Assembly: GCA_019429185.1 (NCBI GenBank)
Contig: JAHYJH010000001.1
Location: 36,821-100,820, forward strand
From: Vicingaceae bacterium
GTDB lineage: Bacteria; Bacteroidota; Bacteroidia; Flavobacteriales_E; Vicingaceae
Length of the DNA: 64,000 bases
Direction of reading: 5' to 3'
The notes under the pieces are model-generated. The model did not search any database. It saw only the letters and a program-made list of their open reading frames with translations, and was not told the DNA's origin. Every line of letters begins with the position of its first letter. Within the stretch, counting starts at the first letter, position 1. Positions 13,422 through 14,803 of the stretch are shown piece by piece. The translations under genes and the position numbers were made by a program.

Positions 13422-14639
13422 TTATTTACCTTCCAACTCGTTAATTCTTTTATCTTGTTCTATAATATAAAGTGTCAATTCCTCTATTTTTTGTAATAAA
13501 ATAGCATCCATTTGAGCAAGGTCTATGCCTTTTTCTTTCACTTCAGTAGCAGAAGGCACATCGGGTAAGTGTTTGTTTTTAACTATGAAATTTTCTAATT
13601 GAATTAAAGACATTAAATTATAATTGGGTTCAAAAACAAAGTCAGACCAAACAATACTTGCAGCATCTACATTTACTCTCCTTGCTCTAATAACTCCTTC
13701 CACCGAAAGTTTAGCACCATTAACTGCGGTTGTGCCTATGCCTACATTTCCATTGCCCAACACTACGAAACTTTCTTCTTGTGTTTCAGCATTATAAACA
13801 GCAAATGCTTTGGTTTTATTTTTTGCTACCATACTTCGTATTCCATATCCGTAATCTCCTGTATGATTAGTTGCAACTGTTAAACCTGTTTCATTTTGTG
13901 CAACAACATTTAATTTTGAGAAATTCAGGTTATCCGTTCCTATGCCTACACTTCCATCTCCTTTTACTACAAACACATCTTGATTGGTACTGTGATTGGT
14001 TACCGAATAGGCAATTATATTTGTTGTAATAACCCTATTTTGAAAAGCATATTTTGTTGATGATGTTGCTGTAGAAGGAATAGTGAGTAATCGAAATCCG
14101 ACTTCTTTTCCTACGCTTCGCATATTTAGCTGAATTTCATTATCAGCAGCAACGCCTATTGCTGTGGTGTTTAACCTAGTTATTCCTCCTATGGTTAAAT
14201 CTCCTGCTATGGTTACGCTTTTAAAATTTGGGCATAATGCGATATCATCATCAGTAGTAGTGCCATTAGCAAATACCCATGGGGTAACATAACTACAAAC
14301 ATAAGTGTCATCTTGGGGGATTGTTAAATTTGAAAGTGCTATTCGACCAACAGGATTAATGGTTAATATTCTTGCTTCCTGAATCGGTCCAGAGGAAGGA
14401 GGAGGTGTTGGGTGAATCCTAAATTTATCTAAATACACATTTCCAAAAAACTTGGCAGCCGTATCTTCCAACAATCTAAAACTTTCAACATTGTTTCGTT
14501 TAAAAACTAAGTCAACATTATTGATAGTACCAACAAACTGAGTGGTATCGACTTGACTACCGTTTAATTTCCATGGTGCTTGTGCATTGGGGTTGCTATT
14601 CGGATTTTGGGCTATAGCTATAGAACTCAGCCAACCCAT
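13422..14639 (-). CDS. Tail-fibre-like surface protein, possibly phase-variable (true start may be ATG at 14748)
   Basis: VGIGTT repeats and C-terminus WSDFVFEPNYNLMSLIQLENFIVKNKHLPDVPSATEVKEKGIDLAQMDAILLQKIEELTLYIIEQDKRI typical of Bacteroidota fibre proteins; the frame is open upstream of 14639 into a heptanucleotide repeat. Confidence 0.75.
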   Translation of the reverse strand: MGWLSSIAIAQNPNSNPNAQAPWKLNGSQVDTTQFVGTINNVDLVFKRNNVESFRLLEDTAAKFFGNVYLDKFRIHPTPPPSSGPIQEARILTINPVGRIALSNLTIPQDDTYVCSYVTPWVFANGTTTDDDIALCPNFKSVTIAGDLTIGGITRLNTTAIGVAADNEIQLNMRSVGKEVGFRLLTIPSTATSSTKYAFQNRVITTNIIAYSVTNHSTNQDVFVVKGDGSVGIGTDNLNFSKLNVVAQNETGLTVATNHTGDYGYGIRSMVAKNKTKAFAVYNAETQEESFVVLGNGNVGIGTTAVNGAKLSVEGVIRARRVNVDAASIVWSDFVFEPNYNLMSLIQLENFIVKNKHLPDVPSATEVKEKGIDLAQMDAILLQKIEELTLYIIEQDKRINELEGK

Positions 14640-14663
14640 ACTAAAAATTAAAATTGAAAATTT

Positions 14664-14740
14664 GACGATTGACGATTGACGATTGACGATTGACGATTGA
14701 CGATTGACGATTGACGATTGACGATTGACGATTGACGATT
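14664..14740. repeat. Tandem heptanucleotide repeat (GACGATT)11
   Basis: Eleven exact consecutive copies of GACGATT (AATCGTC on the coding strand). Confidence 0.97.
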
Positions 14741-14772
14741 GAATTCATAATTAAAAATTTATAAATGAGAAA

Positions 14773-14803
14773 CAAATGTAAAACAGTTTTTTGAGAGAAG
14801 CAA
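14773..14803 (-). promoter_or_regulatory. Bacteroidota-type promoter: TTG (-33), 20-nt spacer, TACATTTG (-7)
   Basis: Minus strand TTG (14803-14801), 20 nt, TACATTTG (14780-14773), matching the TTG/TAnnTTTG consensus, about 25 nt before ATG 14748. Confidence 0.6.

What the first reader, a model, noticed from the sequence alone, without database searches (positions are those of the whole stretch)
14639..14803. Heptanucleotide (GACGATT)11 tract arranged as a phase-variation switch for a surface fibre gene
Seen: exactly 11 copies of GACGATT (14664-14740). On the minus strand, a TTG-N20-TACATTTG promoter is followed by ATG at 14748, the repeat, then AAATTTTCAATTTTAATTTTTAGT directly before the annotated ATG at 14639. 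The 14639 frame is open backwards through KFSILIFS into the repeat, and KFSILIFSMGWLSSIAIAQ is a complete signal peptide, whereas the annotated start keeps only its second half (MGWLSSIAIAQ). ATG 14748 to ATG 14639 is 109 nt, so with 11 copies the upstream start is out of frame and terminates at TAA. Loss of one copy (10) or gain of two (13) puts it in frame as M-N-S-I-V-(NRQSSIV)n-KFSILIFSMGWLSSIAIAQ. Because 7 is not a multiple of 3, every slip changes frame. Inference: slipped-strand ON/OFF switching of export or expression of the fibre protein.
Basis: partly seen in the sequence, partly recalled or inferred. Interest (0 to 1): 0.85.

Follow-up and report, generated by a model that had tools for sequence, protein, structure and literature searches.

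The report
Repeat-driven on/off switch for surface fibres
A seven-letter DNA repeat sits inside the export signal of a surface-fibre-like gene family in an uncultured Bacteroidota bacterium, placed so that gaining or losing one repeat should switch export of the protein on or off, much like the Opa surface proteins of Neisseria.

Summary
The tract is real: 11 perfect copies (TCAATCG on the coding strand), starting 6 nt after an ATG (14748) that lies 24 nt behind a Bacteroidota-type promoter, in front of a 405-aa ORF. With 10 or 13 copies it runs into the ORF and restores a full signal peptide. The strongest evidence is comparative. Paralogues in the same genome and in two sister species carry the same promoter, leader, ATG, non-triplet repeat and signal core, with different units and copy numbers: 3 loci ON, 5 OFF, 1 in phase but with a nonsense codon. 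One subgroup uses an octamer. The OFF window gene is under purifying selection relative to an ON paralogue (dN/dS 0.13). The genes are mosaics. The architecture matches Neisseria opa and E. coli neuO, apparently without kinship. Cautions: this genome is full of fast-evolving, mostly intergenic heptamers (30 of 34 repeat tracts in 0.69 Mb), and switching within a population was not observed. 'Fibre' rests on a weak model only. Verdict: probable Opa-like contingency-locus family, confidence about 0.7.

The parts
14801..14804 (-). promoter -33-like element TTTG
   Evidence: sequence; conserved in most paralogue leaders (alignment A3)
14773..14780 (-). promoter -7-like element TACATTTG, 24 nt before the upstream ATG
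   Evidence: sequence; TATATTTG/TATCTTTG at the same place in most paralogues
14746..14748 (-). upstream start codon ATG, probably the first AUG of the mRNA
   Evidence: ATTATGAA is present in nine of the ten aligned leaders and TTTATGAA in the tenth
14662..14742 (-). heptanucleotide tract, 11 whole copies of TCAATCG (GACGATT on +), stop-free in all three frames in the coding direction
14641..14643 (-). TAG that ends the 11-copy reading frame, 1 nt before the internal ATG
14607..14665 (-). signal-peptide hydrophobic core and cleavage region (KFSILIFSMGWLSSIAIA/Q), fused to the upstream ATG only at n = 1, 4, 7, 10 or 13
   Evidence: conserved as LSMxWLSSIAIAQ in paralogues
13422..14639 (-). 405-aa fibre-like ORF (mosaic; beta-hairpin repeats and C-terminal coiled coil predicted)
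12787..13419 (-). 210-aa outer-membrane beta-barrel-like protein, 2 nt downstream, probably in the same operon
   Evidence: weak PF13505 match, E 2.2e-4, below cutoff; gap

Best explanation
The tract is a translational contingency switch. Transcription starts just upstream of ATG 14748, and ribosomes begin there and read the heptamer as the n-region of a signal peptide, as (NRQSSIV)n. Slipped-strand mispairing adds or removes 7-bp units, so each step changes the frame. In one phase (n = 1 mod 3, e.g. 10 or 13) the repeat is fused to the hydrophobic core and AIA/Q cleavage site and the protein is exported. In the other two phases translation ends 1 or 8 nt before the internal ATG, giving no protein or at most a short-start protein with half a signal. 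The gene belongs to a multi-copy mosaic family in which each copy has its own switch, so cells could show different combinations of surface proteins. Shown: layout, frames, paralogue states, purifying selection, mosaicism. Inferred: the promoter, use of ATG 14748, export, slippage in living cells, surface location, the fibre fold and any benefit.
For: (1) Frame arithmetic and stop-free repeat. (2) Same layout at further loci with different copy number and phase: C91 n=4 ON; C152 n=7 in phase but with a nonsense TAG; C117 (ACGCTACA)5 OFF; G001 C250 and C280 ON, C359 n=5 OFF, C400 OFF (syntenic, next to the same aminotransferase); G005 C58 n=4 OFF. (3) Two distinct non-triplet unit lengths, 7 and 8 nt, at the same place in one family. 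(4) TCARYYK tracts occur in this genome only at these genes, and ATG plus such heptamers occurs in 6 of 396 genomes of the class. (5) The C91 frame continues from ATGAAA through the repeat into a complete signal peptide; repeat-free homologues have a full signal peptide there (MKTLQHFN...FFMFAYSSIAYGQ). (6) OFF window gene versus ON C91: dS 0.20, dN 0.026, ratio 0.13 over 225 codons. (7) Promoter and leader conserved. (8) Mosaic paralogues.
Against: No reads or isolates were available, so switching itself is unobserved. Heptamers are abundant in non-coding DNA of this genome and turn over quickly at control loci, and some sit inside or before housekeeping genes (a bioF-like gene in G001; a nuoK-like gene), so a heptamer near a start codon is not proof of function. 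Of 64 tract-by-strand cases, 5 outside this family could also be fused to an ORF. C152 carries a nonsense codon in its signal and one leader (C133) has no gene, so part of the family is decaying. The paralogues are related by duplication, so they are not independent cases. No signal-peptide predictor was available.
Confidence: 0.7

Rival explanations
1. Incidental heptamer. The tract is one of many fast-evolving heptanucleotide repeats of this genome that happens to lie in the 5' leader; translation starts at the internal ATG and copy number has no consequence.
For: 30 of 34 repeat tracts in 689 kb are heptamers, mostly between genes; several occur next to unrelated genes. Relatives in public databases are called from the internal ATG (P0004, P0008, P0009, P0016, P0018, P0026).
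Against: Proteins starting there have a 10-residue signal without a charged n-region, whereas in-frame paralogues and repeat-free homologues have full signals. P0026 is called from the internal ATG although its upstream frame is open, so this start choice looks like a gene-caller artefact. The unit is specific to this family, stop-free and in a fixed position.
Confidence: 0.14
2. Decaying gene family. Heptamer expansion broke the reading frame of duplicated genes, and OFF copies are dead, not switched.
For: C152 nonsense codon; C133 leader without a gene; 5 of 9 loci OFF, close to random expectation.
Against: The OFF window gene is intact over 405 codons with dN/dS 0.13 against an ON paralogue. 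G001 C359 and G005 C58 also keep long intact ORFs while OFF. OFF states are equally common for a proven switch: 65.6% of neuO alleles (PMC13001214).
Confidence: 0.11
3. Tuning rather than switching. Repeat number changes translation efficiency, RNA structure or n-region length, or the TAG-T-ATG overlap allows reinitiation so that the OFF phases still make a cytoplasmic or weakly exported form.
For: TAGTATG is kept in all heptamer members. In the window and in G001 C359 one OFF phase ends at that TAG, 1 nt before the internal ATG. Graded UTR repeats are known (Moraxella uspA2, cited in PMC4679880).
Against: The same letters encode the conserved L-S-M of the signal, which is enough to explain why they are kept. 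Frame change is unavoidable with 7 nt.
Confidence: 0.05

Closest known systems
Neisseria opa genes (CTCTT pentamer in the leader-peptide coding region)
   Same: multi-copy surface-protein family, non-triplet repeat in the signal-peptide coding region, frame-shift ON/OFF, variety produced largely by recombination (PMC3960869)
   Different: 7- or 8-nt units instead of 5; unit sequence differs between paralogues; the repeat encodes the n-region before the core; the protein is not an Opa-type barrel; uncultured Bacteroidota
E. coli K1 neuO (AAGACTC heptamer in the 5' coding region)
   Same: heptanucleotide, 5' coding position, full-length product only in one of three phases (PMC13001214)
   Different: an acetyltransferase carried by a prophage; single gene; the repeat is part of the enzyme, not of a signal peptide
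H. influenzae hmw1/hmw2 (ATCTTTC heptamer)
   Same: heptamer repeats in front of adhesin genes (unit from general knowledge; PMC8262952 covers HMW1A phase variation and was found, not read)
   Different: the repeats lie in the promoter and act on transcription, not on reading frame (general knowledge)
Dispersed intergenic heptamers (TAACTGA in Beggiatoaceae, Cyanobacteria and some Bacteroidetes; heptamers the commonest long SSR class in most genomes)
   Same: same unit length, dispersed repeats; probably the raw material here (PMC4679880)
   Different: those lie mostly between genes; here the repeat is translated

Membership tests
SSR-driven translational contingency locus (general class) | non-triplet tandem repeat inside an open reading frame near its start | tested here: met
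   frame open only at n = 1 mod 3; C91, G001 C250 and C280 open through the repeat
SSR-driven translational contingency locus (general class) | copy number varies between related loci or species, with both ON and OFF phases | tested here: met
   n = 11, 7, 5, 4, 4 and about 3; 3 ON, 5 OFF, 1 nonsense
SSR-driven translational contingency locus (general class) | reversible copy-number change within a clone or population | not testable with these tools
   no reads or isolates
Neisseria Opa | repeat lies in the signal/leader peptide coding region | tested here: met
Neisseria Opa | CTCTT pentamer unit | tested here: not met
   units are TCAATCG, TCAACTT, TCAATCT/TCAGTCT or ACGCTACA
Neisseria Opa | Opa-type outer-membrane barrel protein | tested here: not met
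   no Pfam, NCBIfam or PDB sequence match; model shows beta-hairpins and a C-terminal coiled coil
Neisseria Opa | multi-copy family with mosaic recombination | tested here: met
   window matches C91 at 93% over nt 99-831 and C152 at 94% and 88% over other segments, with a 57-69% middle
Peptidase S74 / phage tail-fibre family | S74 chaperone domain match | tested here: not met
   no Pfam hit at E up to 1; one PHROG hit of unknown function only
Trimeric fibre fold (phage tail fibres, Bdellovibrio fibres) | fold similarity | tested here: inconclusive
   Foldseek best hits are fibres (viral E 4.6e-7, PDB E 3e-3) but TM below 0.3 on a pLDDT-66 monomer model

The most novel reading that the evidence does not exclude
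An uncultured environmental Bacteroidota lineage whose genome is flooded with heptanucleotide repeats has turned them into an Opa-like system: a mosaic family of fibre-like surface proteins, each with its own heptamer or octamer switch in the signal peptide, in which the repeat unit itself differs between copies. Fibre genes are followed closely by different envelope-type genes, so the switch may also control variable partners.
Probability: 0.45. Interest if true: 0.72.

Novelty: new variant of a known kind. Interest (0 to 1): 0.58.

Why it matters
Repeat-slippage switching is known mainly from host-adapted pathogens; the three literature searches aimed at this found no such case in Bacteroidota. 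If true, this is a natural case in an environmental lineage, where the selective agent would more likely be phages, grazers or surfaces than an immune system (speculation). It also shows how a genome-wide background of heptamers could be recruited as switches, and that gene callers choose a start inside the signal peptide and so hide such loci.

Tried and rejected
Pfam, NCBIfam and PDB sequence searches gave no family for the protein. A search with the repeat-encoded N-terminus gave little more than low-complexity hits. The idea that all heptamers of this genome are coding switches was rejected: most are intergenic, many units contain stops, and only this family shows signal peptides. The idea that heptamers are typical of the genus was rejected: none in 400 kb of sister species G004. 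Copy number as a pure assembly error was considered: an 81-nt tract fits inside a short read, and frame differences recur in several loci and genomes, but it cannot be excluded for a single locus.

Full report
What is there. On the minus strand, a TTTG-N20-TACATTTG promoter-like pair (14804-14773) is followed after 24 nt by ATG 14748, then 11 perfect copies of TCAATCG (GACGATT on the plus strand), then TCAAATTTTCAATTTTAATTTTTAGT and an internal ATG at 14639 that opens a 405-aa ORF. The repeat is stop-free in all frames in the coding direction. Computed translations for 1 to 15 copies show the ORF fused to the upstream ATG at 1, 4, 7, 10 and 13 copies. At 11 copies the product is 35 residues, ending at TAG (14643-14641), 1 nt before the internal ATG; at 12 it ends at TAA, 8 nt before.

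Paralogues. The window lies in contig C230 of a 3.66-Mb draft genome. Its paralogues and relatives were fetched and read. Same genome: C91, (ACTTTCA)4, frame open, MKLSTFNFQLSTLSMLWLSSIAIAQ..., 354 aa, ON. C152, (TCAATCG)7, in phase but with a TAG inside the signal. C117, (ACGCTACA)5, OFF (ON at 3, 6, 9). G001, identified as Bacteroidetes bacterium HGW-Bacteroidetes-12: C250 ON, C280 ON (474 aa from ATG), C359 n=5 OFF (ON at 4, 7), C400 OFF with an imperfect octamer; C400 is the syntenic locus next to the same aminotransferase gene. G005: C58 n=4 OFF (ON at 2, 5, 8). Promoter and leader are conserved, including before an unrelated gene (G001 C51) and before a relic without a gene (C133). Repeat-free homologues carry an ordinary full signal peptide at this place, while several relatives are called in databases from the internal ATG, including P0026, whose upstream frame is open.

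Selection and mosaicism. Between the OFF window gene and the ON C91 gene, dS is 0.20 and dN 0.026 over 225 codons (ratio 0.13), so the body of the gene is kept. The window gene is a mosaic: 93% identical to C91 over nt 99-831, 94% and 88% to C152 over other segments, with only 57-69% in between. In six of the loci examined a different gene with an export-type N-terminus follows the fibre gene within about 80 nt.

Background and caution. In 689 kb of this genome, 30 of 34 exact repeat tracts (at least 3 copies and 21 nt) have period 7; in 400 kb of sister species G004 there were none. Most lie between genes, and many units contain stops. Six control tracts were compared with G001 and G005: where the flanks could be aligned, most were absent, degenerate or different, and one was kept. 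So heptamers arise and decay fast here, and any single one may be incidental. Against this, TCARYYK tracts in the own genome occur only at these genes, ATG followed by such heptamers is found in only 6 of 396 genomes of the class, and the octamer subgroup shows a second non-triplet unit length in the same position. One lipoprotein in another genus has a similar heptamer in its signal (L128).

The protein. No Pfam, NCBIfam or PDB sequence match. An AlphaFold2 monomer model has mean pLDDT 66 with a confident C-terminal coiled coil and beta-hairpins. Foldseek's best hits are phage S74-type fibres and Bdellovibrio fibres, but with TM-scores below 0.3. 'Fibre-like' is a lead only.

Mechanism and comparison. 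The best reading is a slipped-strand translational switch of a signal peptide. Its nearest known relatives in mechanism are Neisseria opa (CTCTT in the leader region, recombining family; PMC3960869) and E. coli neuO (AAGACTC in the 5' coding region; 65.6% of alleles out of phase; PMC13001214). Unit and protein type differ from Opa, so it works like Opa but is not a member. Dispersed heptamers in Bacteroidetes and other groups are known (PMC4679880) and probably supplied the raw material. Literature searches found no SSR signal-peptide switch in Bacteroidota; they cover only the open-access library. Switching in cells, use of ATG 14748 and export remain inferences.

Noticed in passing
G000 sampled stretches (window, L045-L047, L068-L073, L079-L118): Exact tandem repeats in this genome are almost all heptanucleotides (30 of 34), with many different units, e.g. 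GTGAATA x10 and TTTGTTA x6; none in 400 kb of sister species G004.
   Followed up: partly
L061 (G001 C323), about 2488-2515: Four TCAACTT heptamers lie in frame inside a bioF-like aminotransferase gene, adding STFNFQLSTFN to a housekeeping enzyme.
   Followed up: no
L085 19952-19982 (G000 C36): A TTTCGAG heptamer run lies in frame inside a ketoacyl/HMG-CoA synthase-like gene.
   Followed up: no
L128 (G080 C113): A lipoprotein of another genus starts MKINFQLSTFNF...LLLFSC, its signal peptide encoded partly by TCAACTT heptamers: a possible separate case.
   Followed up: partly
L063 (G005 C278), about 3289-3317: A PorP/SprF-like gene has about three TCAACTT-type heptamers in its signal peptide (LLTFSFQLSTFNCVAQ).
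   Followed up: no
L047 (G000 C117) 1507-1551: A distant member of the family has an octanucleotide (ACGCTACA)5 at the same position, out of frame.
   Followed up: yes
L079 (G000 C133) 123-250: The conserved leader, ATG and a short heptamer run at a contig start with no fibre gene behind them: a relic or assembly break.
   Followed up: partly
window 7356-7378: A TATTTGT heptamer run (3.3 copies) overlaps the 3' end of a MiaB-like methylthiotransferase gene, in its last codons.
   Followed up: no
L086 16884-17006: A dispersed element (heptamers next to CCCCTCCCCTTTGGGGAGGTTGGGTGGGG) recurs at many places in G001 and G005.
   Followed up: no
window 16448-22534: A 2028-aa repetitive, SprB-like secreted protein with a gliding-type C-terminal domain (by eye, not searched) lies on the opposite strand beyond the aminotransferase gene.
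   Followed up: no
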